The notes below the pieces were generated by a model. It did not search any database and was not told the DNA's origin. It was given only the letters and a program-made list of their open reading frames with translations. Shown here piece by piece: positions 619 to 39,698 of a DNA stretch of 64,000 nucleotides. The DNA lies in assembly GCA_029964075.1 (NCBI GenBank), contig CM057138.1, positions 9,418,932-9,482,931 on the forward strand, given 5' to 3'. Both the position numbers and the translations under genes were made by a program. The stretch comes from Patiria pectinifera. Its lineage: Eukaryota; Echinodermata; Asteroidea; Valvatida; Asterinidae. Position 1 is the first letter of the stretch, and each line of letters begins with the position of its first letter.

Positions 619-674
619 GCTTGTGCAGTAACCAGCATCTGCAAGGCTGCAAAGAAAATCAGGAAGGCTTGCAT
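619..674 (-). CDS. First coding exon with signal peptide, unknown secreted protein (S1 paralogue)
   Basis: On the minus strand an ATG at 674 opens MQAFLIFFAALQMLVTAQ and then a split codon (GC), followed immediately by a perfect GTAAGT donor at 618-613. The peptide is a textbook signal sequence: a hydrophobic core with small residues (A, T, A) before a likely cleavage at the exon end. The exon is conserved at 39643-39698 with three silent third-position changes and only F8C and V15A, which looks like protein-level constraint. Later exons would lie at lower coordinates, outside the window. The protein family is not recognised. What is seen is the start, the signal peptide and the donor; that it is a secreted-protein gene is inference. 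Confidence 0.6.
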
Positions 675-915
675 GATGATACGTGTCCTTCCTGTCCTGG
701 TTCAGGTCCACGTAGGGTCCGAAAGATTTTGGTTCGAAGCTTTTCAATGTGACTTTTAATCTTCAGCAGACCGTATCAAACCAAGAAGAGGTGAGACTTG
801 GCGTCGTTGCGTGCCTCGATCACTTTAAGCACGAATTATCCCCTCAACAGCTCAGCGTAACAAAATGTTCACCGGGCTACTGCGCTGTGGTAGCAACACC
901 GCAAAGCAGCTGCGG

Positions 916-922
916 TCTTATA
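916..922 (-). promoter_or_regulatory. TATA box of the S1 signal-peptide gene
   Basis: The minus strand reads TATAAGA within GGCATATAAGACC, about 240 bases upstream of the ATG at 674. The same TATATAAGACCCC-like block stands at the equivalent place in copy S2 (39951-39957), about 250 bases upstream of its ATG. Conservation of spacing and sequence supports a core promoter with a leader of roughly 200 bases. The transcription start itself is not seen. Confidence 0.45.
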
Positions 923-977
923 TGCCATCGAAGTGCAGTCGCATCGCCTCTGGGTTGTGATCTTTCCCGGATCTTCC

Positions 978-987
978 GGGAAAATCT
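978..987 (+). promoter_or_regulatory. Candidate kappaB-like site (S1)
   Basis: GGGAAAATCT matches the GGGRNWYYCC consensus at nine of ten positions and lies about 56 bases upstream of the TATA box. Copy S2 has TGGAAAATCC at the equivalent place (40014-40023). Short matches occur by chance; only the conserved position makes it worth listing. Confidence 0.2.
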
Positions 988-2130
988 TGGGCTGTACCAA
1001 GTTAATGAAAGGGGCTGGAAATGCTCTCGGAGGGGAATATGATGAGACCCTTGGCAAAACAATACGTGGCACAATTGCAGAATACCCCACCACTCAATCT
1101 ATCCACCTCGTAGCCGGCTACGGAGTCACGGTTGATTGCCCTCAATAAACCTTCTCAGCGCTACTTTTATGTACTATGCGCCATGCTCCACTGCACTCCC
1201 ACTCCGTGGGGTAGTTGGTTTGGACTCGCTGCTGATATTATGATTTGATTGTTTCATGAAGCCCCTTGGGTTATAGTTACAGAGTAATGATTTGCATCAT
1301 TTCAATTTAACCGACTCAAACACTAACACACATTAAAGGTATATGTTGGGGTCCACTGTTCCTTCCTCCATCGTTGCATTATAGTCTTTACAAAAACCTC
1401 AACAAATCATATTTCATACTTCACAGAAAAACAGTTTGCGGTATATTTTTTTTCTGGAAAGTATATTTGTATATAGTGGCTCCCGCATCCCTGGGCGTGT
1501 TCAGCATCATCTCTAAAGAAGCCATTTTAATCCATTCTTGATTTGGTGAACCTGCTTGATTTAATCCAATATTAAACAAAGCGTATTGACCTTTTCATCA
1601 TTTAAAAAGCATGCTACTTTCTACGAATGATCTGTAGAGTATATTCCCTTTGAACTACTTAAAAAAGTTCGTTTTAAACATGGCGTCAAATGCCGAATTT
1701 CGAGATCACTTTCAAAAGTTAACATATGTGGAAATCAAGGTTTTCCTCGTGTCAAGACCCCGGACCCTACCTTATAGGGGAAATCCCATGCAGCAACATT
1801 TAACGATAAACCCATGCAGAGCCTTGAAATGACATCCGGGAGAGTTGGAATCGGCGCGTGTTCTCCATGGTATGGCCAAGTACCCCCTAGTTGAATAAAC
1901 ATCTGTACAAGCAACTATAGGGGAGGCCAGTTACCTTGGGAAATAAGTTGATCCAAGGTTATTGGGGCTGCTTGCCGCACGTGCTGCTCGTAAACCCATC
2001 GTGTCATTGGTCACGAAGTGAACATCAACATCAGTTTGCCGGATCGAGTTTCAAAACCAAAACCACATGTTCAAGTGGGTGTATGATAACATTTCGGGGG
2101 CTACATTTTATCAGAATGAACAGAAGTGGA

Positions 2131-4107
2131 AAAAGTAACATTCTATGATGAGCTATCCACATGAATTGACTAGCAATATTTTCATATACAATTGGCTTTA
2201 CGGCCGACATTTCGCTGCTTTTCAATGAAATTGTTACACAGGATAGGTTGAGGGTAAATAGAGACGTGGTTTCAGTTACTTATACCAGAATGGTTACATA
2301 TATAAGATAATAATATTCTATCACAGACCCCGTGCAAACCCCTGAACTAGCTGGTGGAGATGCATGGATGACGTCTTTCTTATTTGGACACAGGATAAAG
2401 ACACATTTAACACATTCATAGAGTTCTGTAATTTCTTTGCATCCCACAATCAAATTCACGCACCCGATGATCCCGTTCCTTCCTTGATGTTCTCGTCCAC
2501 TTAAATCAAGGTTTCCTATCAACGGACAATATATTCTCCAAACCCACAGACAGTCATCAATATCTCTCCTTCAATTCATGCAACCATTTTAAACCAACAT
2601 ACAAAAAAAAGCCTACCCCTAAGCTTGCTCACCGACTTAGGAGAATATGCTCAGATCCTGTTTTTCCAAACCCCCATGGTCTCTTTTAGAAACAGGCCCG
2701 TCACTCAAAAACATGCTCGTCTCCTCCTCTCTCAAACCCTACTCCACACCCGAAAGGCTTTTTGAAATGTTCAGCCAATTAAATGATGCATAACCTGCTA
2801 ACATGCAAAAAATGACAACCACATCAGCAGACAGCAGTACTTGAACGGGAGAAACATTTCCCATTAATAATTATGCCAAAGTGCCGAAAACAGAATTTAC
2901 CATCATCACTTCTCCCCCACCGAAAATTCGATCCGCCCTGGCTTCCACATAGTTTCTTTTGAATATTTTACACCTCAATTTTCACAAAGACAATGTTTTT
3001 CTGTACACCGTAATTCAATTGTTGCCTTTCGGAGGCGGGCCGGGTGTGGGGTGGAAAATGATAAGTTATTAAAAAGAAGAAGAAAAAAGGACAGATAAAG
3101 CTATTGTCCATCACTTGCAGCCATCCGAAAAAGTAACTGGCGTATTATTGTTGAAAAACATACTTGGATGAAAGATAGTAAGTGCACTAAACTCCCTGTG
3201 AAATTAATCTTTCTGGCGATTAGCTATCATTTTGAAGTAATCAACGAAAGAAAGCCTTTCCAACGGTGCGTCTTAAGACGCACCGTAGGATAATTTAAAT
3301 TAGTAGTTCGTTTGGTTATTCGGCGCACTGAGCGCGCGCAAGCATTGGCACGACACACAGGCGCGCGCGGTTGCTATAATTCGTCGGATCAGTGCGCGAC
3401 ATCGCGTATAGCTGCAATTCAAAACAATTCAAAACATGATTCATCAACTTTTGATTTGAAATTGAGATCCTAGAATATGCTGTTTTTTCTCGGAATATAC
3501 AGCTGAAGCTGAACTGAAGCTTCATCAGGTTAGTTAAGTATCCTTCATTAGATTTTGAACACGTTTGTTGCTTCAAACGAACAAAAGGCACAAATTACAA
3601 ATGATGGACTATATCTTTAAAAAATAACTACAAAAAATATGGATAATCGCTACATTCTGCAGGGGCACATTCATCGAGCTGCGTATTAATGTTAGTTTTA
3701 TGAAATGGGTGAAGGATTTTATCACCAGTGCATCATGTGTACGCATTGTACTCGCTGCTTAACCTACAGCTGAAAAACATGAACAAGGGACGAATTTCGA
3801 ATTCCAAGTCTGTGGTTCGGCCAATGGTTTCCCTTTAGAAAACACATGTCCCTAGCCTGCACATAAAGTAAAAACAAATGACAACACGTTCACATGCCAA
3901 AAGAAAATGGAAGGGGGAAAAAACCGTCTCTCTTCCAAAATGTACTTTTTACTTAGAGAATTGCATGTACCTAATTCTCTCTTAGAATTCCAAAATTGTT
4001 CTTTCTATAGGGCTCCCGGTTTCGAATAGGCCTATACTCTTCGCTCGGCACATGCATGAACTCTCATTTCAAGGACCTTCGTGTGATAAGACCGCCAACC
4101 TGTTGCT
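2131..4107. other. Intergenic, no gene recognised
   Basis: Only short open frames are present and none shows a recognisable domain or splice-consistent structure. AT-rich stretches and a GA-rich tract near 3075 are the only texture noted. Confidence 0.5.
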
Positions 4108-4258
4108 CTTAGACCGGGAGCCAGAGGGGGTCAGCCTAGCTGGAAAGTTAACCAATTTTCATGTATGTAGAAATGTTCCACATGCATACCAATGTAAGGA
4201 AATGGACGTCTGCCGGGCACACTGTGGTGGGTATGGTCAGGAGGGCCATGAGAAAGGG
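4108..4258. repeat. Outer inverted arm, left
   Basis: About 150 bases from CTTAGACCGGGAGCC to GGCCATGAGAAAGGG are the near-exact reverse complement of 11979-12130. Because the two arms translate almost identically in opposite directions they could be mistaken for a gene. They are more simply the ends of a large palindromic element that contains everything between them. Confidence 0.75.
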
Positions 4259-10569: not shown

Positions 10570-11960
10570 CGGACATCAATTTTATAACCATCAGCTAGCT
10601 GACCACAATTCAACGTCTTTTTTAGTCGTTCAAATTAATAAGGCGTCTGATTATTTCGTTTGGGAATTACGACGTTGCACATGCATTCTTTAATGACTTT
10701 TTAATTTTATTACGTGAAAAACGGACGTTATATTTTGGTCGAAACTATGACACACTATCGACGTAATGTAAATAACCAACAGCCGACCACAATTCAACGT
10801 CATTTTTGAGTTGCTGAAAAGACGTCAGAAAACGGACGTTTTATTTTGGGTAAAACCATGACATAACGATATAGTAACCATGCACTGACCAGAAATCAAC
10901 GTCGTTAATTGATTCGTTGAAATGACGTTAGAAAACGGACGTAATATCATGGTTGAAAACATGACCTAATAACGACGTCAATATTATAACCAGCAGCCGA
11001 CCACAATTCAACGTCGCTTTTTAAGATGTTGAAATGACGTCAGATAATGGACGTTGTGTTTTGGTTGAAAGCATGACATAAGTACGACGTCAGTTATTAT
11101 AACCAACAGCCAACCACAATACAACGTCGATTTTGAGTCATTTGAACGACGTTAGAAAACGAACGTAATATCATGGTTGAAAACATGACTTAATAACGAC
11201 GTCAAATATTATAACCAGCGGCCGACCATAATCCAACGTCATTTTTGAGTCGCTGAAAAGACGTCAGAGAACGGACGTTATATTTTAGGTAAAACCGTGA
11301 CTTAATAATGACGTTAAATATTTTAACCATCAAACGACCAGAAATCAACGTCGTTATTTGATTCGTTGACACGACGTTAGAATACGGACGTAAAATCATG
11401 GTTAAAAACATGACCAAATAACGACGTCATATATTATAACCAGCAGCCGACCATAATTCAACGTCACATTTTGAGTCGTTGAAAAAACGTCAAAAACTGA
11501 CGTTGCATTTTAGTTAAAAGCATGACATAAGTACGACGTCGGATATGAAAACCAACGGCCAACCACAATTCAACGTCGTTTTTTGAGTTGTTGAAACGAC
11601 GTTAGAAAGCAAACGTCATATCTTGGTTGAAAACATGACATAATTGCGACGTCGCGAAAGGAAACACAAAAATAACAATAATACAACGTTGTTTTTCAGG
11701 CCGTTGTAAAGACGTTGACAAAACAACGTCATACCATGGTTGAAATTACGTTTGGTAATATTCCCGACCAAATTCCAACTACATTTCGACGTTGTTGTTA
11801 TGTAAAATTCTGACGTTAAATTGTCGACACTAAAGCAACGTCCGGCAGACGTTATAATGGCAACGTCGTCTTTTGGTCGACTAAAACAACGTTGATTTTC
11901 GGTTAGGTATGGTTGATCCGACGTTGCGACCATAATACAACCGTTAAACAACGTCAGTCT
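10570..11960. repeat. Degenerate minisatellite, period about 112 bases
   Basis: The phrase GACCACAATTCAACGTC (with variants) recurs near 10785, 10890, 10995, 11110, 11222, 11335, 11445 and 11557, spaced about 105-115 bases. Each unit carries a GACGTYAGAAAACGGACGT-like half, TTTTGGTTGAAA, CATGACATAA and ATTATAACCA. This is subterminal DNA of the ACGTC element. Confidence 0.75.
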
Positions 11961-11978
11961 GACGGTCGGTGCCTGCTG

Positions 11979-12130: not shown

Positions 12131-12875
12131 ATGTTTACACACTCGTGGGACTTGGAAGACATCTGGTTTACCACTTAAATTACACTGGGGTCTATTTAAA
12201 CAAACATAAAGTAGCACATTGAAATTCGAAACCAGAGCGAATAGCCCTGTTTCAGTCTTGGCTTTTGCCTGCTTGAATTAACTTGTGCCTGTTTTTCAAT
12301 AAGGTCGGATTTGGTTAAGTAGTATAGGTACCGGGATGTGTCACAAATTAATACAAATCTTATCAATTTGATCGTTTAATTAGTCCATATATCTCTTCAG
12401 CTTCAATGCAATGTTAATATGTTGATCACTGAGGGTCAATGCCAAAGAAATATACACGTTATTTTTCCTTCCAATTATGGCGTTATGTCTGATTGACTTG
12501 AGACCACCACCCTAAGATCAATCTTTTGTTGATTCATGGCGCCATCACGTGTCATGACCTCAGATTAAAGGGGCAACTAAAGGTCCGATTCAGTTGTAAC
12601 ACATACTGTTATCTATATATATAAGAGAGAAGTTTACTCGGCCTGCGAGACGATGTTTGCTCATGAAAGGATCCGAGACCGCGGGCTCACGCGGCGCCAA
12701 AATCGCTCCACGTCCGTGGAAAAATGCGGAGGGTGTCTTCCGCCGGGTCGGACGCTTCGGGTCGTCCTTATTTTCCCGTACGGACCGGCGATCCGTTTCG
12801 TCGATTTTTCGTGACTGCATTTTGCACAGGAATTTGCCGTCGTGTGCGCTTTCACGTTGACTGCCTGGTCGCCCC

Positions 12876-13542
12876 TAGCCTTTTGCCCAGGCCTTCGTGG
12901 CGTAGAGCGGCGGAGTTGCGAAGACCCGAAGCGACAGGAGCAAAGATTAAGTCAGCACGCACGAGTGGCAAAGCCACGAGGCCTTTTGCAACTTGATTTT
13001 GTTGAATTATTCATAGTTTTTATGCAAATAAGAAGCGTGCTGAAGGTTAACCAATCACAACGCAGATTTTGCCTAGTCGCTTCCATTTAAAAAAAAGGGT
13101 GAGTAAGGAAACCGTAAGAGCAAATAACTGTAAGTTCAGATGAAAAATAAGTTCAAACCTTCAAATAATTTGTTGAAATACCTTTATAAGTAAAGTTAAA
13201 GTAAGATAATGTAATAACAATTACGCAGTCACGATCTCGTGGAAAACTAGACTCGCATTTTTTGTTTTTAAATTTTGTGCAAGCATCCGACGTGACGCGT
13301 CGACGAGTCCGCATCCGGGTGGTAGCACGCACGCACGAAAAGGCTGATGATTGGTTGGAATTTTGCTACCCTGTTGGGGTAGCAAAAATCGAGATTATAA
13401 AGAGAAACATAAGAATCACGACAAGTTGCAAAAGGCCCTCGTGGCTTCGCCACTCGCATGTGTGGTCTCCATCTCCAGTCGCTTCGCGTTCGCCGCTTTG
13501 AATGCGGGCAAGTTAAGCCACGATGGCGTTGGTGAAAGGCTA
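12876..13542. mobile_element. Long-TIR DNA element nested in the Helitron
   Basis: The termini are TAGCCTTTTGCC and GGTGAAAGGCTA, inverted, and the inverted similarity extends inwards past GAGTGGCAAAGCCACGAGG to GCAACTTG (about 120 bases each side). It is flanked by the 9-bp direct repeat GGTCGCCCC at 12867-12875 and 13543-13551. The second Helitron copy has the empty site (GGCCGCCCC, 38307-38315). Nine-base duplications and long TIRs fit Mutator-like elements; no transposase is present. Confidence 0.8.
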
Positions 13543-14901
13543 GGTCGCCCCCCGTGCTGGCTTTTTCTGCGTGTCTAGACTGTGCGAGGTCAGCGAGGCC
13601 AACGTAGGGGTTTCGTTTATGTGTTCTACTCGGCCGTTCGGCAAAAGCGTTCACCAAACGTTAGTATGGGGTGACCTTGGTAAAATATTTTTGTCCATGG
13701 TGCGTGGCCACCAAGTGTCCCTATTCTTTCATATGCTTCGCTTGCCGCCCGTGCGCCGAGTGCAACGAATACTCAGAAGGACTATACATTAGTATGCCTA
13801 GCGCGGTCTGACCAATCGAAAGTCTACACTGCGTGGCACTTCCCGGCTATGCGTAAAACCGTCACTGGCAACGCGCACTGCAGCCTGCTCCACACCCTAG
13901 AAACGAGGTTGAGTCTACGGTGCTCGCTATTTGAAGCGCAAGCATGTGACGTCGCGTGAAAGAGTGCTGTTGCTTCCATAATGTGTTTACAGCTCCATGC
14001 TTCCACCACCAAGGCTGAGCGTTGTGAGTTCGCTGCCCGCACGTATAATTCAGTGTCGCGTTATAATTTCGGGGGCCTGTTTGGGGTCAACGAAGGATCG
14101 ATGCATTGCTTCAAATATCACGATAAAGTTGAATCGACTTCTTCCTCGCAGACGGTGTCGCAAATTGTAAGAAGTCAAGTTTACGTTTGTTGAAGAGTCC
14201 AATACTGAAACTTAATTGTGATCGACCTTCCTCCATGATTCAGACCGAATTTTATGGTAACACTCAACATTTTCATTTCAAATGACACCTTCACGTTTTA
14301 TTGCATTACTAATTTATTGTCAAAATTGTACCTACAATCAGCCTTCGCCTGTGTACTACAGTAACCTTTTCACTACGTTTTCCAAATGCGACTGCCTCAC
14401 AAAATGCCAATTTAACAGACCAACGGGAACATTTACAGACAGTTGCCATGGTACATAATTATCATGTGTGTAAATCGACGGGGGATAGGGGAAACCCATG
14501 CACCCCCCCCCCCCATTTTAAAGCGGGGGACATTGTTTGGTCCCCCGCCCCACCCCACCCCCACTTTTTCTTCCCCGAAAAAAATCGTAGCCTACAATAA
14601 TGATTATATTGCTCAGAATGCATGTGGCTGATTCAATTACTCCAAACTCAAAACTTTAAAAGATGACCTTTTGCTCAAATTGGTTTTAGTGGTCAGAAAT
14701 TGCCTCAGATCACACCACAGAAATTGCTTTTCTATAACTGCATGTTCTCCCCAACTATAATCTCCACATTTTCATCCACAGCACTACGCCCTACCCGATC
14801 TACGATCGGGTAAATCAGCTTGTACATGATATTTAGTGACATGACGAATTTCGTCATCACGTCACAGAGCAATTGAAAAACCCCCCAGACAAAGCAGCTT
14901 C

Positions 14902-18413: not shown

Positions 18414-21400
18414 CTATGTCTGCCATGACGCCCTTCCGACGTGTTCTACGAAGCTGGCTTCACAGGGTGGAAGATTGGCAAGAGGCCTGTCCGTCGTAGC
18501 CAGCTTGAGCCGCAGATGGTTGATGAGGTATCCTTGTGCATCCTTGTCTTTCTCGCCCTGGTAATACATAATTGCCACAAACTTTCTTGCTGCATCTATT
18601 ACTCCCTTTTTCTCAGTTTCTGCCAGTTTGGAAAGATCGGTAAAGCGCTTAGCTCCCTTGGACTTCAGAGGATTGAACACTTTCTTCTTGCCGATCCCAA
18701 ATAGGGAAGAAACAGAATCACATCCGGTCAGTGAGTGTACTGCAGGAAGAATTCGGCAGAAGTCAGAATCGAGTGATTCGCATATTGCGTGTACGGGAAT
18801 GAATCGGCGCCTGTCTGTTGTCCTTGTTATGATACCTGTTTCAATCCACATCACAGGAATGTGTTCCATTCTAGAATGTGTCCGGAGACTTGATTATCAC
18901 CTGTTCTTTCAAACCACTGGAGCCAAAAGTTGCATTCGCGGATGAAACGTGCAAAAACAGTCTTGTATCAGCTTCTTCTTGTGTACTAAACATATCTGTC
19001 GCATCTTCAACACCACTGCTGGTGATGAACTTTGTCAGCATTTCATCAGAGAAACTTCCAGCAATGATAATAAGTGTTTGTGATGGATGAGGTCTCAGGG
19101 CAGTTGGGGTATTGTGAACCATGTACTTACAGATGGCTGTACAAGTGACTGTTTGTTCACTGTAACATTCAGGAATTTCTTCCAAGGAGGTACTGGACGG
19201 CCACCGATCACCTGGTATATCCAACCCTGGATCCTGTGCGATGATGCCTTTCTGCTGTCTTCACGGAACTGCTACAGTCATATCTGTCAAAGACTTCTGT
19301 TACCGTGTCTGCTTTGTCAAATCCTTTCAGGACCTGCCTCAAGTATGCCGCAGCTAAGTCATCAAATGTACGGAACTTGTCTCCTGCCATCATCTGAATG
19401 ACAGCCATGGCATCTCTGATGTAAACTGTGCTAGATGTTGCGCTAGCAGGTAACTCTGTCACCTTTTCTGCTTGAGATTCTAGCCGGTGGCCTAATTCGG
19501 CCTTGTTTGTTTTCCTCATTATACCATCAGGGTGGAAGATGGACACTGGAACAGCTCCTATTGGGTGACTCAGTACAGTTGTCAGTGAGACATCATCTCT
19601 GCATCTCGCCAACGTCAATGCTCAACGGAAGACAATTTCTGGACTAATGGTCCCTGCATTTGTTCTACCATCCCCGGACCGGAATGTGGTCTTCATACAC
19701 ATGTCAGCAAATGTCTTGATGCCAGATTTCGTAATAGGACTGTATAGAACCCCCGTGTCCCACCGGAAGTCAAAGCTCCTGTCACAAACCTCTCCATGTT
19801 GTCTTTGCCAACCTTTGCAATATTCAGAAGAGACTCTTGTACTTCTTGTGTTGCATGAAGTCCAGATGTGATTCAGGTTCAAATGGGTTGGTCATGTTGT
19901 TGATTACATGGTCGATAATGGCTGTAACGTGCTCTTCATCTTTCTTCCGTCTGGAGGGCAGATTCTGTTTATGATCTGTGTCTTCTCTACTGGTTGCCAA
20001 TCCACTTCTTTCACTCATAGCCTTTGCATACTCGTTCATCATGTGCCTCGTTAGAGTCCATCGGATAACGGCTTGCTTTTTCCTGGTCAGACCAACAATT
20101 CCACCATTGCTTTTTGAGTCTTTGATGACGGTTTTCTCAACTGCCATGTCACTCCTAACTCCATTAAATGAACCAGGATTCTGATGAATTGCAGACTCTC
20201 CAGACTAAAAGGCATTCTGAACATCACTAGGAAGATCTACCATGTCAAGGCTGTAGACTGGGCTCCATCTAGCATAGTTTGGTCTGCTGGCAGCGAAGAA
20301 ATAAGGAATCATGGCACGCTGTGAATGGAGGTGAAGTTTCAAGTTGTCTTCTCGCTCAGCACGGCTATTGAGAAGCAGTATATCTGTATGACTTGCAAGA
20401 AGTGACCCCAGAACTTAAATGTAACAGACTGAAGACGTCCCCAGCTCTGGAATTGTTTCACCGAGGGAAGAATATGCTTGGCCACATCATCCTCAAGCTC
20501 TCTCACAGAACACTTTACAAGCTCACTGTCGTCAGACTCAGAAAATGTCTGTTGAACATCTGACATTTGCTGCCAAACACATTCCGGGATGGGACAGCTA
20601 TCTTCTCTATTTTCACACCATTTCACCATTGCAGACAGTTGAAGAGCAGTAAGAGCCTCATAGACTAGGGTCAATCCACGTACGGCACGATTGAACTGCT
20701 TTCCAGCAAGCATTTGATCTGCAGTACATGCTGCGTAGACGTCTGACTCAACAAGAAGATCCAATAATCCCGCATCTCCCCAGAACTTCCCTATGCATGC
20801 AATATAGCAGCAAAGTTGGTGGAAACCACCAAGGCTAAGTATGTAGGTACCAAATTCATTCGGAAAGTTCCATTTCACTTGTTGAGCGACAGCATATAAT
20901 TGCTGGTCCATAGTTTGAATGGCATGTAGTTGTCCTAAAGCTGCTGACATTTCTTTGCATTTCAGCATGGTAGTGTAATCTGTGGCTACATCAGCTGGTT
21001 TTGCATCCACAATAGCGGCAAATGCCACTGCTGTGTAAGTGGGCTTTCTTGTAGCAAGCTTGTGGTTGAATCCGGACCAAAACGGAATCACCTGAGAATC
21101 AACAGGTGATTCTCTTTCCCACGCTTCACAGCTGTTTCTGAAACACTACTCTGGTCATGGAATGTGCGTTGATATCAATATTATCATCCCCTTCTTGAAT
21201 TCGACTTCCACCTCTAGGAAGTGGTATGATTCCATTTGGAATGAACACGCCTTCTTGAAGAGTTTGTACTTTTAGCTGCGCTTGTAAAGAAACGACCATC
21301 ATCCCATTATAGGTGATACATGTATCACCTATGATGAGCCAGAAGCCATTGTTACTAAGGATGTCAATTAGCCTTCGAGATCCAAACTCATGATGTTTTG

Positions 21401-21500
21401 TGCAGCAAGACCTACTTAGAGTGGAGTGATTACATTGGAGCTGTTGAATACTAGTACTGCACTCAGCTATTGATAGAGTGCGTCTTCGGATACTTTCTGT
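18414..21500 (-). pseudogene. Broken copy of a large uncharacterised invertebrate protein family (TGCD family)
   Basis: Reading the minus strand from 21500 down, the frames give in order: HHEFGSRRLIDIL (about 21400), FIPNGIIPLPRGG and DNIDINA (about 21200), [19 protein letters not shown] and LVYEAL (20770-20650), YFFAASRPNYARWSPVY (about 20290), GGIVGLTRKKQAVIRWTLTR (about 20080), STQEEADTRLFLHVSS and IIKSPDT (about 18930), and HSLTGCDSVSSLFGIGKKK (about 18700). This is the order of an abundant invertebrate family of unknown function. The EADTR..DTD and TGCD segments recall FEN1/PIN-type nuclease motifs, but that is inference. Stops (for example after VQNAF near 20215) and frame changes make it a pseudogene. 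The N-terminal part is disrupted by a palindrome (21309-21332), and LINE DNA begins at about 21655. Confidence 0.7.
21309..21332. repeat. 24-base perfect palindrome inside the broken gene
   Basis: ATAGGTGATACA faces TGTATCACCTAT. The inverted copy of the gene carries a 23-base version at 43719-43741. It replaces the expected coding sequence right after the RRLIDIL segment, so it is probably an old small insertion that predates the duplication. Confidence 0.7.
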
Positions 21501-21689
21501 AGGAGGTAGTAGGTGCCAACAGATTCATAGGCCTTTGCATAGGACTTTCTGCACAAAATGAAACTAGGGGGTGAAGTTGAATGTATCTACATAATTCTTC
21601 AAATTTGTTGTGTATGAGAAATTGATTGATATTGCATTTTGTTGGCCCAATCATCAGCTTTTAAATCATGTATAGTTTGTTTGGAACTT

Positions 21690-23086
21690 TACCCACTCCA
21701 GCAGAAAGGCCTGGCGCACAATAAACTGACTGACTGGTCGAGGAAAAGCAGCCCCAGGCAAGTGCCCGGTCTCAGCCAACAACATTGCCTCGCAACTCGT
21801 GAAGAATGGCCGGCACAACCATAGTGATAGGTCATTCCAGAGGGAACTGAGAAAGAGTCTGTCAGAGCTGTGGAATCCCCCGGCGTCGACACTAATCTGT
21901 CCTCTGACTTCACACCATCTGAAGTCCGAGACGCCATCCGCCAGCTAAAATGTGGTAAAGCTCCGGGTCCAGACCTCGTCCATCCTGAATTCATCCTGCA
22001 CTCTGGGAAAACTGCCCTCACATGGCTCGGAAGATTTTTCTCCTCATGCATGCGGCGACTCAGAATCCCTAAGATCTGGAGAATTAGAGTGACGGTAATT
22101 GCCATTCCGAAGCTGAACAAGCCAACTGATGACGTTAAGAGTTACAGACGTCAGACCGATATCCCTGCTGTGCGTACCATATACGATCTTGGACCGCATG
22201 ATCCACAGCCGCCTGGAGCCTGTTATCGAGCCTCAATTACCACCAGAGCACGCAGGTTTCAGGCGCAGCAGGCAGTTGACCAAGTAACCCTTTTGACGCA
22301 GGACATTGAAGATGATTTCCAGACCAACTCGAAGGCGGGTGCAGTTTTCCTTGACCTCACAGCCGCCTATGATACCGTGTGGCACCGAGGTCTGGCATAC
22401 AAGCTGCTGAGGACTGTTCCTGACAAGCACGTGGTCCGGTTCATCACGGAGCTGATTTCCGACAGGGGCTTCATCCTGCCGCGGACCAGTGATGGTCAAT
22501 AAAGTCGCCTGCGGCGTTTGAGGAATGGTGTTCCAGAGGGCTCGGTGCTATCGCCAATGCTATTCAACATCTACCTGCATGACATCCCCCTCGAGCAAAT
22601 ACACCTATGCCGATGACCTTGCCATCCGGTCGTCTAGCAAGAGATGGGATCAGAGAGCAATCTCAACCGGGATGTAGCTACATTGTCGTCTTACCTGAAT
22701 AAGTGGAGACTCCTGCTCAGCGGCACAAAGACTGTCTCGGCAGCATTCCACCTCAACAACCGGGAAACTTCCCGCGAACTGAACATCGAGCTCAATGGAA
22801 CACGCTGACCCTGCCCCACAAGGGAAACATCTAGAAAAACTGAGGGACAAAGTGTCATCCTGCGCTGCCCTCCTCCGGCGGCTAGTTGGCATTTCCTGGG
22901 GCGCAAACACAAAAGTGCTTCGGACTACAGCACTAGCACTGGTGTATGCACCAGCAGAATACTGATGTGCTGCCACATGGTGCCGCAGTGCACACACGTA
23001 CTCGACTTGTTGATGTGCCTTTTAACAACTGCCTCCGCACTATCACTGGATGTCTACGACCAGTCCTTGCCGGTATTCTGCTATTA
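21690..23086 (+). pseudogene. Non-LTR retrotransposon (LINE) reverse transcriptase remnant
   Basis: The plus frames show CGKAPGPDLVHPEF, RIRVTVIAIPKLNKP, VDQVTLLTQDIEDDF, AVFLDLTAAYDTVWHRGL and, in another frame, TYADDLAIRS at about 22600. These are the order and motifs of a LINE reverse transcriptase (fingers, the DLTAAYDTVWH block, YADD). The linker upstream (VSANNIASQLV-like) matches the downstream part of the LINE at 62.2-63.9 kb, so it is the same family. Frameshifts near the DDVKSYR region and again after TSDGQ break it. Clade is uncertain (Jockey/CR1-like). Confidence 0.85.
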
Positions 23087-23400
23087 CCATAGGCTTGAAC
23101 ACCTTTGACCACTGTTATCAAGTGAGGCAAACTGAAGTGGTACGCGCATGTTTCAAGATTGTAAGGCAACGTGCGAAGACGTTCCAGCAATGCACAATTC
23201 AACGAGAAAGACAAAAAGAGCCAGACAGAAGAAGGACTGGGAGGACATAACCGAGAGGGCAGGCCAGCCCTGTACTTTGAAAGCTCCCACAGAGACATAC
23301 AGAGGACCGGTAGAGATGAAGTAAACTCGTGCATGGAGAGATGAAGTAAACTCGTGTATGGAGAGATGAAGGAAACTCGGTGGACGGGTGTTCCTATGTT
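23087..23400 (+). pseudogene. Possible LINE 3' tail plus short tandem repeat
   Basis: A frame reading RQKKDWEDITERAGQ resembles the C-terminal tail of some LINE ORF2 proteins. At 23311-23384 a unit of about 25 bases (GAGATGAAGTAAACTCGTG plus a few) is repeated three times. Weak support. Confidence 0.3.
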
Positions 23401-27030: not shown

Positions 27031-27131
27031 CCCAAGTGTGGGCACTTGGATTGAAATTATGTGCCTTATTATGTGCAGTAAAACATCCTTTTTAAAATGA
27101 TATTTTTTTTTTTTTACTTTTGTCTTTGTAG

Positions 27132-29336
27132 AGAGTGCACAAGCTTCTGCAGGCACTTCAAAGGCTGCTACAACCAGCAAAGATCAGGTTAAGTCTACAG
27201 AAAGGGTCAAAATACACAGACTAAGAAATAAAGTAAAACACATAAAGGCTAATCTAGAAAAGATACCCAAACAATGTGGTTCAGTCAAAAACATCATACA
27301 AGATGCTTCTAAATTCTTAGATGAAACTGCCTTGCATTTCTTTGCAAGTCAGCTTCGAATTGGGAAAAGGAGAATGAAAGGTAGACGATATACAAGTAAT
27401 GAGAAACTTATGGCCTTTGCTTTGCACTACCAGAGCCCTGCAGCATACAGGTTTTGTCGCAAGATTAAGCTTTTTGCCTTACCAAGTGAACGGTCCTTAA
27501 GAAGATGGTTAGAGAGAGTACAAGTTCAACCAGGGTTTAATGACACTAGTTTTGAAATCCTGAAGCAGAAGGCTGAGACCATGTCCGAAAGAGAGAGGGT
27601 TTGTGTTTTAACACTGGATGAGATGAGCCTAAAGGCTGGGCTGTATTATGACTTGCATAAGGATGTCATAGAAGGAATGGAGGACTTTGGGTCACTTGTT
27701 AGGACAAAAAACTTGGCAACTCAAGCACTTGTATTTATGGTAAGGGGCCTCAGCTCAAAGTGGAAGCAACCTGTGGGGTACTTCCTTTCCAATGGAGCTA
27801 CCCCAGGTAACACACAGAAGGTGTTGTTATTGGAATGTTTGCAAAAAGTGCAGGATGCGGGTTTCATAGTGAAAGTTGTTATCGGTGACCAGGGCTCTAC
27901 CAATCAAAAGATGTTTAAAGAGCTGAATGTTTGTGCAGACAAACCTTACATTGAGTTAAAATCTGAGGATGGACGTACAAACAAAGTCTTCTTCATGTTC
28001 GACCCCCCACATCTTCTCAAAAATGTTCGAAACAATTTGAAGAGACACATCTTTGTAGTGGAGGGACATGAAGTAAAGTGGAACTATATTGTTGAGTTCT
28101 ACAAGCATGATTCCACTCTTCCCTTGAGGATGGCACCAAAGCTGAAATCAAAGCACATAGAACTCCCTCCATTTGCCAATATGAGGGTTAACCTTGCAGC
28201 ACAAGTCATGAGCCACAGTGTGGCATCTGGTATCTTAACATATGCATCCTTGGGAAAATTACCCTCGGAAGCTGTGTACACAGCTCAGTTTTGGAGCGTA
28301 TGGATCACCTATTTGATTCTTTCAATGCTAGATCTTTAAAGTGTACAAAAGTATACAGAAGAGGAGTAAGAGTTGGGTCGCCCCATGTGCAGTTTTGGAA
28401 AGATTGCATACAATGGATTAAGAAATGGCAAATCAAGGATGGGTCAACAGAAAGAGTTGCCTGTTTTAGTGGGTGGGTTCTGACCATAAGTGCTGTTGTC
28501 CAGTTGTTTGATGAACTTACTACCAGCGGCCTGTTCAGATTCCTGTTCACAAACAGGTTGAATCAGGACTGTCTAGAAAATCTGTTCTCTATCATAAGGG
28601 GTAGGGGAGGACATAGAGATAACCCTTCGGCAAATGAGTTCAGGGCTGCTTTGAAGCAAGTAATGTGTAGTAAGATGATGGTGCCTTTGGGACGTCAAAA
28701 CTGTGAGGAAGATGGCTCAGTTTTCTTCAATTTCACAGTGTCAGGTGCCAGTCACTCTGAAAATAGGAACGTGGCATCATTGGAGCAATCTGATAGTGTG
28801 TTTCAAGGTTTATGTGATGACCTAAGTGAAAGTTCAGACCAACTTCAAATGAACGCCATTGTGTATGTTGCAGGATATTTGGCCAAAAAACACTAGCAAA
28901 GCACAATTGTCAAACATGTAAAAATGCATTGCTGAATGAAATAAATGTCATGGTAGATCAATCTCAACTATTGACCAGCTTTAAAGCATACAGCAGTCAC
29001 CAGTCCGACTTTGGAGGTTTGACAGTGCCTAGTGAAAATCTTGTCAAATTTGTTGAGGTGTGTGAGAAAGTGTTTGTCAAATGTTTTAACAACTTCTTTC
29101 ACATCAAACACATTGGGAAACGAATTGTGGACAGAATTCTTGCAGTTACAGGTAAAACTGTCTGTTTGAGTTTGTGTCAAAGAGATCAAGAAATTAAATT
29201 TGTCTCATTTCTTGTAAGATTCAGATTGCATGCTGCAGTGAAGTTCTACAACAAGGACTTGACCAAAAGAAAGACTGACCAAAAAGGAAAGAGAAAAAAC
29301 AGAAAGTTGATCAAAATATCCCATGTGTCTGCATAG
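27132..29336 (+). pseudogene. P transposase exon 4 (coiled coil and catalytic core), two frame changes
   Basis: After TTTGTAG, phase 1 continues into a Lys/Leu-rich coiled coil (VKIHRLRNKVKHIKANLEK), then the RNase H-like core: VCVLTLDEMSLKAGLYYD (first Asp), VVIGDQGSTNQKMF (second Asp), FDPPHLLKNVRNNL, and RLNQDCLENLFSIIRGRGG, whose D-x2-E pair matches the GTP-contact Asp and catalytic Glu of P/THAP9 enzymes. NAIVYVAGYLAKK and a C-terminal NCQTCKNALL finger-like segment follow, ending ISHVSA at 29336. One-base shifts are needed in the T run near 28291 and the A run near 28887. Expected total is about 900 residues, the THAP9 size. Confidence 0.9.
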
Positions 29337-30623: not shown

Positions 30624-30654
30624 CTGTCCTATCTTCCCCTCTCTAGTATCTTTG
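30624..30654. repeat. P-element terminal inverted repeat, right
   Basis: 31 bases, perfect reverse complement of 24537-24567, followed by the target duplication GTGTAAC (30655-30661). Confidence 0.95.
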
Positions 30655-30779
30655 GTGTAACTATATTTGCTATATATTTCCAACCCCCCAATTCCATCCA
30701 TTTCTGAAAATTACAGCAAAAGCAAATGATGTATATTCCCTTTAATAATAATAATGGTCCCACCAGCATTGTTCATACT

Positions 30780-31047
30780 GTCTAGATTTACGTCACGGTG
30801 ACACAAACACACCCGCTGTGACCCGGGTTCGATTCCCGCTTGGGCCATTGTGGATTGGGTTTTCAGTCCCTGCCTGATTCCGTGGGTTTTCCCCAGAATA
30901 TTCTTCATGGCTTTTCCTTCCACCTCTAAAAACTGTAATTTATTCTCATTGTCTCCTCTCTACGGGTTTTGTCAGGCTTTCGGGCCACAGTGCTATAGGG
31001 CACTTTTGAAGAATCCTTGGTTTCATAACCAGACAGAAATAAAATGC
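30780..31047 (+). mobile_element. tRNA-like SINE, array copy 1
   Basis: It contains a clean polymerase III B box, GGGTTCGATTCCC (about 30824-30836), then GTGGGTTTTCCCCAGAA and CTTCCACCTCTAAAAACTG, resembling the conserved core of invertebrate SINEs, and an A-rich end GAAATAAAAT. The A box is not recognisable, so the 5' half is truncated or degenerate. Copies: 32804-33072 and 36014-36284. Confidence 0.65.
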
Positions 31048-32245
31048 AGTTGAAGTGCTTGAAAGTTGCCCTCGTGGAGATAATGACGATTTTGCCTACT
31101 GGTTATGGTAAGAGTCACATTTTGATAGCCATGTATTCATGTGTCATCCATGCAAAAAGAAGTAAACATTAAATTTTGTTTTCAAAGATTACAAATCACG
31201 CGGCGCACGCGCAGAGGCGATCCAATCAATGGCTTTTAAATGGGAACAAGCTACCGATCCCCATATTTTTATGGGTGCGGTGACCAGTCTATATACACAG
31301 CTCATATCTTGACAGTGTGTACGCATGTAATGTACAAATGAAGTTGTACGTTTATTGAACAGACCAAGCGAAACCCAGACGTGGGCCAAGTCTGATGATG
31401 ATGATGATGATGAAATCCCAAATCGATTTTAGATATCTTGAAATATTTTTGAATTCATCATTTTATGTAGCATACTGTGTTTTTGAAAAACAGAAAATTT
31501 ATTTTCAAAAAATGAAGAAACCATTTTAAAGGAACTTGCAAGTCATATTGAAAGGTGTCATCTAACCGTTCGATGTCTGCTTCGTCTATCGAGGTAGCCC
31601 CGAATCTCCCTAAATCCCCTCGAACCTTTTTATGATTTAACCTTCAGTTGTTTTGTCAATAATGTCTTGATATTCAAAGGTGATTATCTATATCTCGAAA
31701 CGTGCTCACGGACATCTGAAAATGTCTCTCAGACCAACTTTGAAACAGCTCCAAGTCTGACTTTGTTCAATATTTTCAATTTAAAATTTGAAAATGCATA
31801 ATAACAAACACCTTGACATAGGCTATAGCAAAGAAATCTCTGGAGACCTACGTGTGGGTCTCAAGTGATCACGCGATGTTTATGTAAGCCATTTCAAACA
31901 TAAGATAAGTATGCATCAGAATTTGGATCTTTTTCAAGTAGGCCATCTTGAACCAAGGCAAAATCGACCGTATTCACTGAAGTCACGTATCTAGAACAGC
32001 TGCGGTAACTATCCCAGAGCGGCTTCAGGGTGACAATATGGTCCTGAGTAATTTTCCATCTTTTTTTCTCTGCACCTTTGTGTTTTTTCCCTTCATATTT
32101 TTCCCATATGTTTCTTTTCCCCCCAAAAAAGCCGACAGGTAGATTTGCGTTGGGAACGTTCTCTGTCATGGTTATAGCGCGCGGTGACGGCTTCTCACGC
32201 GGAGAAAGATCAGAAATAGACAGTTTAAACATTAAGGCAAAAACT
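31048..32245. other. Anonymous part of the tandem unit
   Basis: Repeated at about 33073-35457 (with an insertion). It contains a (TGA)n microsatellite (about 31393-31412), also present in the next copy. Open frames of about 66-125 codons are conserved between copies merely because the copies are nearly identical; no domain is seen. Confidence 0.6.
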
Positions 32246-32249
32246 TTAA

Positions 32250-32765
32250 AGGGAAAATACAACATTTGCAAAAATCAAAAAATAAAACTACCAAAATCAT
32301 TTTGAAATACCTTGCTGGACTGTAAGTGAATGACAATGTAAAGCATTCTGTAAAATCATGGCACCTGGTATACTGTCATTTTCAAGAAAAGTGGTATTTT
32401 TGTATCAATTTCCAACGCTGATCGGCCGATCAGCGTTGGAAAAAACTGGCTTTTTTTCAAATACTGGCCCCAGTTGACCATCGCACTTGTTTGCAATCGA
32501 TTACACACCTATGAACGGGTACAAGCCAGCTAGACTGGTTCCCTGACCTTACAATTCCCCAATATATGTAAACTGCTCTGTTTCTTCTTAAATGGAGCCA
32601 GGGAACCAGACTACAGGAAAATGATTGTTTTTTCTTGGTTTTTATAGCATTTTCGAACCCAAAACCTAAAAAAAGTCAGTGTAACTATATTTGCTATATA
32701 TTTCCAACCCCCCAATTCCATCCATTTCTGAAAATTACAGCAAAAGCAAATGATGTATATTCCCT
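32250..32765. mobile_element. TTAA MITE, copy b
   Basis: The ends are AGGGAAAATACAACATTTGC and its imperfect inverse GCAAATGATGTATATTCCCT, flanked by TTAA on both sides (32246-32249, 32766-32769). TTAA duplications are typical of piggyBac and Kolobok families; the AGGG start fits Kolobok better. A central palindrome, CAACGCTGATCGGCCGATCA, is present. Other copies are 35458-35975, 62420-62934 and the P-interrupted one ending at 30741. Confidence 0.8.
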
Positions 32766-32803
32766 TTAATAATAATAATGGTCCCACCAGCATTGTTCAT
32801 ACT

Positions 32804-33072
32804 GTCTAGATTTACGTCACGGTGACACAAACACACCCGCTGTGACCCGGGTTCGATTCCCGCTTGGGCCATTGTGGATTGGGTTTTCAGTCCCTAACCT
32901 GATTCCGTGGGTTTTCCCCAGAATATTCTTCATGGCTTTTCCTTCCACCTCTAAAAACTGTAATTTATTCTCATTGTCTCCTCTCTACGGGTTTTGTCAG
33001 GCTTTCGGGCTACAGTGCTATAGGGCACTTTTGAAGAATCCTTGGTTTCATAACCAGACAGAAATAAAATGC
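32804..33072 (+). mobile_element. tRNA-like SINE, array copy 2
   Basis: Near-identical to 30780-31047, with the B box intact. Confidence 0.65.
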
Positions 33073-34201
33073 AGTTGAAGTGCTTGAAAGTTGCCCTCGT
33101 GGAGACAATGACGATTTTGTCTACTGGTTATGGTAAGAGTCACATTTTGATAGCCATGTTTTCATGTGTCATCCATGCAAAAAGAAGTAAACATTAAATT
33201 TTGTTTTCAAAGATTACAAATCACGCGGCGCACGCGCAGAGGCGATCCAATCAATGGCTTTTAAATGGGAACAAGCTACCGATCCCCATATTTTTATGGG
33301 TGCGGTGACCAGTCTATATACACGGCTCATATCTTGACAGTGTGTACGCATGTAATGTACAAATGAAGTTGTACGTTTATTGAACAGACCAAGCGAAACC
33401 CAGACGTGGGCCAAGTCTGATGATGATGATGATGATGAAATCCCAAATCGATTTTAGATATCTTGAAATATTTTTGAATACATCATTTTATGTAGCATAC
33501 TGTGTTTTTGAAAAACAGAAAATTTATTTTCAAAAAATGAAGAAGCCATTTTAAAGAAACTTGCAAGTCATATTGAAAGGTGTCATCTAACCGTTCGATG
33601 TCTGCTTTGTCTATCGAGGTAGCCCCGAATCTCCTAAATCCCCTCGAACCTTTTTATGATTTAACCTTCAGTTGTTTTGTCAATAATGTCTTGATATTCA
33701 AAGGTGATTATCTATATCTCGAAACGTGCTCACGGACATCTGAAAATGTCTCTCAGACCAACTTTGAAACAGCTCCAAGTCTGACTTTGTTCAATATTTT
33801 CAATTTAAAATTTGAAAATGCATAATAACAAACACCTTGACATAGGCTATAGCAAAGAAATCTCTGGAGACCTACGTGTGGGTCTCAAGTGATCACGCGA
33901 TGTTTATGTAAGCCATTTTAAACATAAGATAAGTATGCATCAGAATTTGGATCTTTTTCAAGTAGGCCATCTTGAACCAAGGCAAAATCGACCGTATTCA
34001 CTGAAGTCACGTATCTAGAACAGCTGCGGTAACTATCCCAGAGCGGCTTCAGGGTGACAATATGGTCCTGAGTAATTTTCCATCTTTTTTTCTCTGCACC
34101 TTTGTGTTTTTTCCCTTCATATTTTTCCCATATGTTTCTTTTCCCCCCAAAAAAGCCGACAGGTAGATTTGCGTTGGGGACGTTCTCTGTCATGGTTATA
34201 G

Positions 34202-35377
34202 CTAGACTTGGCCAAGTCTGGGTTGCGCTCGGTCTGTGCCTTTAGTAAATCCACCAGTGAAATCCACTCACAGCGCATATCGCATGTACATAACGCGCGC
34301 CCTCATGCGTCGAATCTGGACCATCATGTTAAAAACGTACATGTACATTGTACATGTTATTTTCAAGTCATGCAGCAACCATTGATCTCCATATACACAG
34401 ACTGTGTATATGGAGATCAATGGCAGCAACCCAGACTTGGTCAATCTGCCAAGCGTACGCGCTGGTTTGTTCCACGTTTGTACACAGTCTATGGAAATTA
34501 ATTCTCGATGTGATTGGCTTCCACCGATTTCGGTAGAAGCCAATCATATCACAATATTTCAGGTAATGAGCGTTTTTATTCTTAAAAACGCGCGCAGGTT
34601 GTTTTGATATTATTCCTAACACGCAATTAGCCTTGTCTGCGTGTATTCGCGCTCGCGCAGCCAAAGTTTTGCGGAGAACGCACACGCATCCCATTGGTGA
34701 GGAGTAGAAACAGATACACGCACGCGTACGTTCGAATGCTTTGAAACGGCTGTGGGTACGCACAACACAAAGCGGTATCAATGGATCTCAACATTTTTTG
34801 CAGGTTAAACCCAATAAAAATTCCATTTTGTTTCGAATAACATTTGAATGTCGTGTTGTTTATAAATTCAATCCAAGAGCAGCTGATTTTAGCATTATCA
34901 TCCAAATATACTGTGTTAGAAATCTACATATTAAGTTTATGTTTTTAATACTTTTGCAGATTGTTATCCAGCCTTCCATACCTACTGAAAGTAATAAACG
35001 AGTCTTCAAAAATTGGTTACTTTGATTGGTCAAGCGATGTTGCTGCATATGCATTTTGATGGTGTTGGATATGCATTGATGAATACAGGCGCGTACACGC
35101 GAGGAGGTGCTGATGGCAGATTGATCAAGTCGGAATTGCTAACTTTTGCACCACATGTATGCACATGCTCTGCAATACATACACACACATGTACGTGTAA
35201 TACGCGTGCTGTACAATGTACATACATGAACAGTGTGTGCGCATTGTTATACGGCATTGAAGTGGAACGCGCGCTGAAGTGTACCTTGTCGGGCATCTGG
35301 AAAGACGTAAACTAAGTGATGTTTGCTACTTTTTTTAAGATACCGACTTAACGCAATTCCGACTTGAGTCAAGTCTA
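34202..35377. mobile_element. 1.18-kb DNA element with CTAGACTTG ends
   Basis: It interrupts the second array unit. The ends CTAGACTTGGCCAAG and GAGTCAAGTCTA(G) are inverted. The flanking direct repeat is GGTTATAG (34194-34201 and 35378-35385). The first unit has the single empty site at 32170-32177. With an 8-base duplication the ends are offset by one base; with 7 bases (GTTATAG) they match exactly. No transposase is seen. A related fragment lies at 17093. Confidence 0.85.
34379..34423. repeat. Perfect 45-base palindrome
   Basis: Two 22-base arms, CCATTGATCTCC... and its exact inverse, are separated by a single A at 34401. It lies inside the 1.18-kb element. Confidence 0.9.
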
Positions 35378-35457
35378 GGTTATAGCGCGCGGTGACGGCT
35401 TCTCACGCGGAGAAAGATCAGAAATAGACAGTTTAAACATTAAGGCAAAAACTTCAA

Positions 35458-35975: not shown

Positions 35976-36013
35976 TTAATAATAATAATGGTCCCACCAG
36001 CATTGTTCATACT

Positions 36014-36284
36014 GTCTAGATTTACGTCACGGTGACACAAACACACCCGCTGTGACCCGGGTTCGATTCCCGCTTGGGCCATTGTGGATTGGGTTTTCAG
36101 TCCCTAACCTGATTCCGTGGGTTTTCCCCAGAATATTATTCATGGCTTTTCCTTCCACCTCTAAAAACTGTAATTTATTCTCATTGTCTCCTCTCTACGG
36201 GTTTTGTCAGGCGTTCGGGCTACAGTGCTATAGGGCACTTTTGAAGAATCCTTGGTTTCATAACCAGACAGAAATAAAATAAAA
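36014..36284 (+). mobile_element. tRNA-like SINE, array copy 3, ends the array
   Basis: The same SINE, but here it ends in GAAATAAAATAAAAT and the neighbouring sequence is no longer array DNA. Confidence 0.65.
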
Positions 36285-37619: not shown

Positions 37620-37969
37620 AAATTTTTTTACTTTTTGACTTGTTTTGACTTTTGACGGAAATGTATTGATGAATGGAATTAAGTACGCGCTTGGCTTCGG
37701 ACCATTATCAGCGTCCACATACTTTTTTTTCCAGGCGACTCTCGAGAGTATAGCACGGAAACAGACAATTTAAGGCCGATGTTATGATATAGAATATATT
37801 TTTCCCAAACACTTTTTATAAAACCGATATTAAGTAATTTAATTTGATTTCTTTTTAAAACAAAAAAATTATGGGAAGGACTGAATTATTTGTAATATCA
37901 ATTTTGCCTTGCTCAGTGGTTTAAGAGAGCTTGCAAAACCTAATTTTGGGTTGTTGTTTTTTTACTTAC

Positions 37970-38011
37970 GTTTGTGCAGTAGCCAGCATCTGCAAGGCCG
38001 CACAGAAGATC
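37970..38011 (-). pseudogene. Partial duplicate of the signal-peptide exon
   Basis: The minus strand reads IFCAALQMLATAQ then a GTAAGT donor, identical in layout to 39643-39698, but the ATG and first residues are lost at a T run. It flanks the Helitron on the other side from the intact exon. Confidence 0.7.
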
Positions 38012-38051
38012 TTTTTTTTTTAATGAAGATCATTTTTTAATGTTGCCAACA

Positions 38052-39609
38052 TCTATATATATAAGAGAGAAGTTTACTCGGCCTGCGAGACGATGTTTGC
38101 TCATGAAAGGATCCGAGACCGCGGGCTCACGCGGCACCAAAATCGCTCCACGTCCGTGGAAAAATGCGGAGGGTGTCTTCCGCCGGGTCGGACGCTTCGG
38201 GTCGTCCTTATTTTCCCGTACGGACCGGCGACCCGTTTCGTCGATTTTTCGTGACTGCATTTTGCACAGGAATTTGCCGTCGTGTGCGCTTTCACGTTGA
38301 CTGCCTGGCCGCCCCCCGTGCTGGCTTTTCTGCGTGTCTAGACTGTGCGAGGTCAGCGAGGCCAACGTAGGGGTTTCGTTTACGTGTTCTACTCGGCCGT
38401 TCGGCAAAAGCGTTCACCAAACGTTAGTATGGGGTGACCTTGGTAAAATATTTTTTGTCCATGGTGCGTGGCCACCAAGTGTCCCTATTCTTTTATATGC
38501 TTCGCTTGCCGCCCCTGCGCCGAGTGCAACGAATACTCAGAAGGACTACACATTAGTATGCCTTGCGCGGTCTGACCAATCGAAAGTCTACACTGCGTGG
38601 CACTTCCCGGCTATGCGTAAAACCGTCACAGGTAACGCGTACTGCAGCCTGCTCCACACCCTGGAAACGAGGTTGAGTCTACGGTGCTCGCTATTTGAAG
38701 CGCAAGCATGTGACGTCGCGTGATAGAGTGCTGTTGCTTCCATAATGTGTTTACAGCTCCATGCTTCCACCACCAAGGCTGAGCGTTGTGAGTTCGCTGC
38801 CCGCCACGTATAATTCAGTGTCGCGTTATAATTTCGGGGGCCTGTTTGGGGTCAACGAAGGATCGATGCATTGCTTCAAATATCGCGATAAAGTTGAATC
38901 GACTTCTTCCTCGCAGACGGTGTAGCAAATTGTAAGAAATCAAGTTTACGTTTGTTGAAGAGTCCAATACTGAAACTTAATTGTGATCGACCTTCCTCCA
39001 TGATTCAGACCGAATTTTATGGTAATACTCAACATTTTCATTTCAAATGACACCTTCACGTTTAATTGCATTATGATTTATTGTCAAAATTGTACATACA
39101 ATCAGCCTTCGCCTGTGTACTACAGTAACCTTTTCACTACGTTTTCCAAATGCGACTGCCTCACAAAATGCCAATTTAACAGACCAACGGGAACATTTAC
39201 AGACAGTTGCCATGGTACATAATTATCATGTGTGTAAATCGACGGGGGATAGGGGGAACCCATGCACCCCCCCCCTCCCACATTTTAAAGCGGGGGGACA
39301 TTGTTTGGTCCCCCCCCCCCCCCCCCCCCCACTTTTTTTTCCCCCCAAAAAAATCGTAGCCTGCAAGAATGATTATATTGCTCAGAATGCATGTGGCTGA
39401 TTCAAATACTCCAAACTCAAAACTTTACAAGATGAGCTTTTGCTCAAATTGGTTTTAGTGGTCAGAAATTGCCTCAGATCACACCACAGAAATTGCTTTT
39501 CTATAACTGCATGTCTCCCCAACTATATCCCCCATTTACATTTAACTCTCCACATTTTCATCCACAACACTACGCCCTACCCGATCTATGATCGGGTAAA
39601 TCAGCTTGT
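38052..39609 (+). mobile_element. Helitron copy 2, 3' end missing
   Basis: It starts A then TCTATATATATAAGAGAG, the same 5' terminus as 12612, and follows copy 1 without the nested 667-bp element. Similarity stops at ATCAGCTTGT (39609) before the hairpin and CTAG. Confidence 0.8.
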
Positions 39610-39642
39610 CTCAGATATTGAAAAACATATATATTTACTTAC

Positions 39643-39698
39643 GCTTGTGCAGTGGCCAGCATCTGCAAGGCCGCACAGAAGATCAGGAAGGCCTGCAT
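39643..39698 (-). CDS. First coding exon with signal peptide, unknown secreted protein (S2 paralogue)
   Basis: The minus-strand ATG at 39698 opens MQAFLIFCAALQMLATAQ and a split codon before the GTAAGT donor (39642-39637). It has the same length and phase as the S1 exon. The 5' leader and TATA region upstream are also conserved. The Helitron copy lies in what would be the first intron. Downstream exons have not been identified. A secreted, possibly lineage-specific protein is inferred from the signal sequence only. Confidence 0.6.

What the first reader, a model, noticed from the sequence alone, without database searches (positions are those of the whole stretch)
619..39698. Paralogous signal-peptide first exons with conserved TATA promoters: an undescribed secreted-protein pair
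Two segments 39 kb apart each hold, on the minus strand, TATAAGACC, a leader of about 240 bases, an ATG, an 18-residue hydrophobic signal sequence and a GTAAGT donor in the same phase. Three of the codon differences are silent, only F8C and V15A change the protein, and both changes keep a signal peptide. A third, ATG-less copy is at 37970-38011. A short first exon such as this is easily missed by gene finders. The family is not recognised; an immune effector is a guess.
Basis: partly seen in the sequence, partly recalled or inferred. Interest (0 to 1): 0.75.

Follow-up and report, generated by a model that had tools for sequence, protein, structure and literature searches.

The report
Sea star complement C3 signal exons
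The two matching first exons look like the secretion-signal starts of complement C3 immune genes in a sea star, a known family, although the rest of those two genes is not in this stretch of DNA.

Summary
Both minus-strand copies have TATAAGACC, no ATG in the roughly 250 bases before the start codon, a signal peptide and a GC|GTAAGT donor in one phase. They lie in a wider 5' duplication (A 457-2127, in blocks). "Undescribed family" does not hold. A neighbouring plus-strand exon led to complement C3-like proteins of the sea stars Patiria miniata and Acanthaster planci. The N-termini of the three A. planci proteins each rank B first and A second among about 50,000 six-frame positions (53 and 48 for the best leader; third place 22). 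The plus strand at 45062-61855 carries 12 C3-like exons, 555 of 591 residues identical to P. miniata. So A and B are most likely signal-peptide first exons of C3-like genes. No exon for the following 550 or so residues was found in the window, so neither is tied to a gene body here. B is most likely the 5' end of a second C3 copy cut off from its body; an alternative first exon or a dead remnant are the rivals. The third copy is a partial exon duplicate inside B's intron 1, beside a repeat insert. C3 duplications in this order of sea stars are already published.

The parts
619..674 (-). Exon A: 56-base coding part of first exon, signal peptide MQAFLIFFAALQMLVTAQ + GC; donor GTAAGT at 618-613
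   Evidence: matches A. planci C3-like N-termini
675..922 (-). TATA-to-ATG stretch of A, no upstream ATG
912..1070 (-). Promoter A: TATAAGACC plus conserved box CGTATTGTTTTGCCAA; 133 of 155 aligned bases identical to B
39643..39698 (-). Exon B: 56-base coding part of first exon, signal peptide MQAFLIFCAALQMLATAQ + GC; donor GTAAGT at 39642-39637
   Evidence: best match of three of three A. planci C3-like N-termini
39699..39957 (-). TATA-to-ATG stretch of B, no upstream ATG
39958..40109 (-). Promoter B upstream of the TATA box, homologous to A
457..2127 (-). A side of the A/B 5' duplication, similar in blocks; B counterpart 37841-41198 with inserts
38052..39610 (-). Repeat-element insert in B's intron 1; a longer copy at 12611-14823 (95.3% and 98.9% in two blocks)
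37963..38011 (-). Third, ATG-less copy: partial exon-1 duplicate inside B's intron 1
   Evidence: 49 nt; 51-base match to B
45062..61855 (+). Twelve exons of a complement C3-like gene (gene R), residues 551-1141 of P0121, thioester motif GCGEQ; open in frame, AG acceptors, 11 GT and 1 GC donor
44489..44988 (.). Run of 500 N between the part with A and B and the C3-like exons

Best explanation
A and B are the 5' ends (TATA promoter, leader, signal-peptide exon 1, start of intron 1) of complement C3-like genes of an asterinid sea star, probably Patiria miniata or a close relative. Exon 1 encodes a signal peptide ending in AQA. Splicing from the GC|GTAAGT donor to an exon 2 that starts with the third codon base would give ...AQ-A-AQYF..., the form of the A. 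planci C3-like proteins, and the product would be a secreted C3-like opsonin. Shown: the anatomy, the match to C3 leaders, C3-like exons in the same window. Inferred: transcription, the splice to exon 2, secretion, the species. A most likely serves a C3 gene running off the left edge of the window. B most likely is the 5' end of a second C3 copy, now apart from its body through an inversion, repeat-driven rearrangement or assembly gap (about 0.5 for this detail).
For:: for 3 of 3 A. planci leaders, B and A rank first and second of 46,468-50,853 scored positions (53/48, 46/44, 46/38; third place 22, 25, 27); in 12 residue shuffles per leader the best score anywhere was 33, 30 and 36. For P0122 and P0123 the match starts at the ATG and ends at the residue split by the donor; 12 C3-like exons on the plus strand, 555/591 identical to P0121 without gaps or stops; the nearest proteins of the neighbouring exon are 4 sea star C3-likes among 115 candidates (that score came from the A2M exon, not from the signal peptide); promoter 85.8% and exon 89.3% identical between A and B, against 69.5% for the 5' part of the leader (911-725); dN 0.05, dS 0.44; no ATG in either leader.
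Against: The match is 19 residues, 11 of 19 identical at best; as plain tblastn hits the E-values are 0.34-7.3, and a 13-residue match of P0124 inside a repeat at 48090 scores slightly better (25.4 bits, E 0.26). A's score for the third leader (38) is only just above the shuffles (36). P0121 has no signal peptide, so no protein of the nearest species confirms it. No C3 exon 2 or other N-terminal exon was found on either strand, and the C3-like gene in the window is on the other strand. Constraint on the exon is uncertain: p = 0.23 in one alignment, 0.003 in another; the start of the intron is 89.3% identical too, and far-upstream DNA 83-85%. No transcript data.
Confidence: 0.92

Rival explanations
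1. B is an alternative first exon and promoter of the same C3 gene as A: transcripts from B skip A and splice to the same exon 2 left of the window, giving nearly the same protein under a second promoter.
For: Same strand and donor phase; no ATG in either leader; promoter and exon kept in both; no C3 exon on the minus strand between B and A.
Against: Needs an intron of more than 39 kb. B's intron 1 carries a repeat insert and a partial exon copy with its own donor. A duplicated gene would leave the same picture.
Confidence: 0.25
2. B is a dead 5' remnant of a C3 duplicate whose body was lost; only A (or neither) is still used.
For: No C3 exon in the 37 kb downstream of B on its strand; repeat insert and partial exon copy in intron 1.
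Against: B's exon has no indel, an intact donor and only 2 amino-acid differences from A; Ala15 of B is shared with P0122.
Confidence: 0.28
3. Assembly error: the contig holding A and B is wrongly placed or turned next to gene R across the 500-N gap, and one of A or B is gene R's own first exon. (Overlaps with the 'cut off from its body' detail of the best explanation.)
For: 500-N gap with repeat DNA on its left flank (44210-44488 matches 20934-20650); gene R lacks its N-terminal half just at the gap.
Against: No N between A and B; nothing in the window itself shows a wrong join.
Confidence: 0.2
4. A and B belong to a secreted-protein family that is not C3.
For: No body attached in the window; Pfam finds no domain above its cut-off in the minus-strand frames of 1-38020 (one hit below cut-off).
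Against: Match to 3 of 3 A. planci C3-like leaders, beside a C3-like gene.
Confidence: 0.06
5. The unit is part of a high-copy transposon.
For: The region is rich in repeats and holds a transposase.
Against: Two full copies and one partial in 64 kb; the insert in B's intron lies inside the unit and is absent from A.
Confidence: 0.03

Closest known systems
Complement C3-like proteins of Acanthaster planci (P0122, P0123, P0124; names as given by the database)
   Same: 19-21 residue N-terminus ending AQA, followed by AQYF or AHYF; P0122 and P0123 align ungapped with A and B from the ATG.
   Different: At most 11 of 19 identical in the signal peptide; P0124 is two residues longer; gene structures in A. 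planci not seen here.
Complement C3-like isoform X2 of Patiria miniata (P0121)
   Same: 555 of 591 residues of gene R, no gaps.
   Different: This model starts at MAQYFIV, without a signal peptide; 6% different from gene R, so a paralogue or a related species' copy.
Starfish complement C3 homologue of Mogilenko et al. 2010
   Same: A starfish C3 gene already in print (seen only as a reference-list entry).
   Different: Its sequence was not seen here.
Vertebrate complement C3, C4 and C5
   Same: The A2M exon of gene R matches C3, C5 and C4 chains ahead of CD109 and alpha-2-macroglobulin; GCGEQ kept.
   Different: Distant; no vertebrate leader was compared.

Membership tests
Complement C3-like (exons A and B) | Signal peptide like that of sea star C3-like proteins | tested here: met
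   B first and A second for 3 of 3 A. planci leaders
Complement C3-like (exons A and B) | Splice from exon 1 to an exon 2 coding AQYFIVAPN... | tested here: inconclusive
   Phase fits; no such exon in the window; no transcripts available
Complement C3-like (exons A and B) | MG, TED and C345C/NTR body on the same strand | tested here: inconclusive
   None found downstream of B in the window; A's downstream lies outside it
Complement C3-like (gene R, 45062-61855 +) | Bait-region, A2M and TED domains in order | tested here: met
   (all three above cut-off)
Complement C3-like (gene R, 45062-61855 +) | Thioester motif GCGEQ | tested here: met
   translation
Complement C3-like (gene R, 45062-61855 +) | Basic beta-alpha cleavage site and C-terminal C345C domain | tested here: inconclusive
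   RRARR present translation; the C-terminus lies outside the window
High-copy transposon | Many copies of the unit in the genome | not testable with these tools
   The genome search did not answer in nine tries; 2 full copies and 1 partial in the window

The most novel reading that the evidence does not exclude
One sea star C3 gene is driven by two duplicated promoters 39 kb apart, each with its own signal-peptide exon, so that expression of the central complement protein can be switched between promoters while the protein stays nearly the same.
Probability: 0.2. Interest if true: 0.5.

Novelty: new member of a known kind. Interest (0 to 1): 0.3.

Why it matters
It gives 5' ends and candidate promoters for sea star C3-like genes, where the one P. 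miniata model seen lacks a signal peptide. Sea star wasting studies report C3 changes: PMC4503460 names two C3-like contigs among differentially expressed complement transcripts (passages), and PMC10320347 reports higher C3 in asymptomatic than in wasting animals (passages). Correct first exons would help assign such reads to paralogues. The identification also removes the claim of a new family.

Tried and rejected
Undescribed family: rejected. Exon 2 directly after A's donor (acceptor near 550, ten codons, then TAG): rejected, since the aligned stretch in B has no matching frame. Unknown minus-strand domains as B's body: Pfam scans of the three minus frames of 1-38020 gave one hit, SPIDER, E = 0.0058, below its cut-off. 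Plus-strand frames were scanned only from 34500 on; the plus strand of 1-34499 had single open frames tested, not whole frames. Rfam and tRNA scans of the window were empty. The repeated minus ORF at 31894-32274: no Pfam or PDB match. The SP-only protein search (candidates about 154-490 aa) found nothing; other lengths were covered only (about 540-1720 aa). Literature: eight searches ran. Searches returned no paper; one search listed 6, one search listed 2, one search listed 6, one search found 11 and listed 10. Passages only were seen of PMC5460417, PMC8960428, PMC11312191, PMC4503460 and PMC10320347; the rest were seen as listings. None of what I saw describes these 5' ends; that claim reaches no further than those searches.

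Full report
Observation. A: TATAAGACC 922-914, ATG 674, donor from 618. B: TATAAGACC 39957-39949, ATG 39698, donor from 39642. The coding parts are 56 bases, 50 of 56 identical, no gap; five codons differ, three silently. The TATA-to-ATG stretches (248 and 259 bases) hold no ATG; 193 and 235 of 5000 Markov-1 sequences hold none either, so each is about a 4-5% event, and the two are not independent. A scan for ATG, hydrophobic stretch and GTAAGT found A and B only; 30 simulated windows gave 0.53 hits on average, three of them two or more.

Extent. The A/B similarity covers A from 2127 to 457 in blocks. B's intron 1 is interrupted by an insert at 39610-38052, a longer copy of which lies at 12611-14823. 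Aligning A's intron with B's flanks joined shows the intron going on after the insert; the third copy (38011-37963) then sits inside that intron as a partial exon duplicate. It is not a third gene start.

Constraint. In a MAFFT alignment the promoter (A 1070-912) has 133 of 155 aligned bases identical (85.8%), the exon 50 of 56 (89.3%), the leader 911-725 121 of 174 (69.5%), its last part 724-675 39 of 50 (78.0%), and the start of the intron 25 of 28 (89.3%). Fisher p on substitutions against leader 911-725: promoter 0.0006, exon 0.003. In a gappier global alignment the whole leader was 188 of 229 (82.1%), exon against leader p = 0.23, and two far-upstream blocks were 249 of 300 and 271 of 320. 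dN/dS rests on six substitutions. Constraint is therefore likely, not proven.

Identity. Pfam showed bait-region, A2M and TED exons on the plus strand, and PDB ranked C3 first for the A2M exon. A query joining B's signal peptide to that exon gave four proteins, all sea star C3-likes, matched through the exon. The A. planci proteins start MQVFLVLSAAFHLLAAAQA, MQVRLIFALALHILTVAQA and MVKVCLLVVCAVVQLLVAAQA, each followed by A(Q/H)YFI. Scored without gaps against all stop-free six-frame positions of the window, each ranks B first and A second. B stands well clear of 12 shuffles in all three cases; A does in two and only just in the third (38 against 36). For the two 19-residue leaders the match starts at the ATG; the third leader is two residues longer. 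The protein database holds metazoan proteins, so the empty search reflects its word and length limits or missing annotation.

Gene R. Twelve exons at 45062-61855 join in frame to 591 residues: 555 identical to P0121 (93.9%), 417 of 586 to P0123, 377 of 572 to P0122, 336 of 534 to P0124. Exon edges were chosen by hand from the protein match and splice signals. One donor is GC (56153). The N-terminal half of C3 is 65-71% identical between P0121 and the A. planci proteins over 536-544 residues, so it should be findable, yet it has no credible match on either strand; the best is 13 residues at 48090 in a repeat. Gene R therefore lacks its 5' half here, next to a 500-N gap.

How it works. The promoter and exon 1 most likely start a secreted C3-like protein; the AQA end fits signal-peptidase cleavage (established knowledge, not tested). 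P0121's first M stands where the leader proteins have the Ala split by the donor; an exon 2 starting with G, joined to another first exon ending in AT, would explain it (inference). Whether B has a working body is open: separate copy apart from its body, alternative first exon, or remnant.

Known or new. PMC8960428 (passages) reports species-specific C3-like duplications in Valvatida, the order of Patiria. PMC11312191 (passages) lists C3 in echinoderms. PMC5460417 (passages) has a Complement C3 in a table of P. miniata skeletal proteins. A starfish C3 homologue was published in 2010 (reference entry only). So the family and its duplication in sea stars are known; these 5' ends are a new piece of it.

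Noticed in passing
27101-29336 +: Decayed P-element/THAP9-like transposase in three overlapping frames; Pfam TNP-like domains in the first frame, relatives in many animals.
   Followed up: partly
21132-23089 and 42010-43948: Inverted repeat pair, 93% identical; reads like a reverse-transcriptase element to me, but no call showed that. A further piece (44210-44488) abuts the 500-N gap.
   Followed up: no
30655-32178 and 32679-34202: 1.5-kb tandem duplication, 99% identical, with a repeated open frame on the minus strand; no Pfam or PDB match for the copy tested.
   Followed up: partly
51980-52719 and 49596-50153: Large imperfect palindromes, the first built of 16-base TTCGGACTATCGAACC-like repeats.
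   Followed up: no
10772-11653: Minisatellite of 112/225-base units.
   Followed up: no
56153: GC-AG intron donor (GCAAGC) in the C3-like gene R.
   Followed up: no
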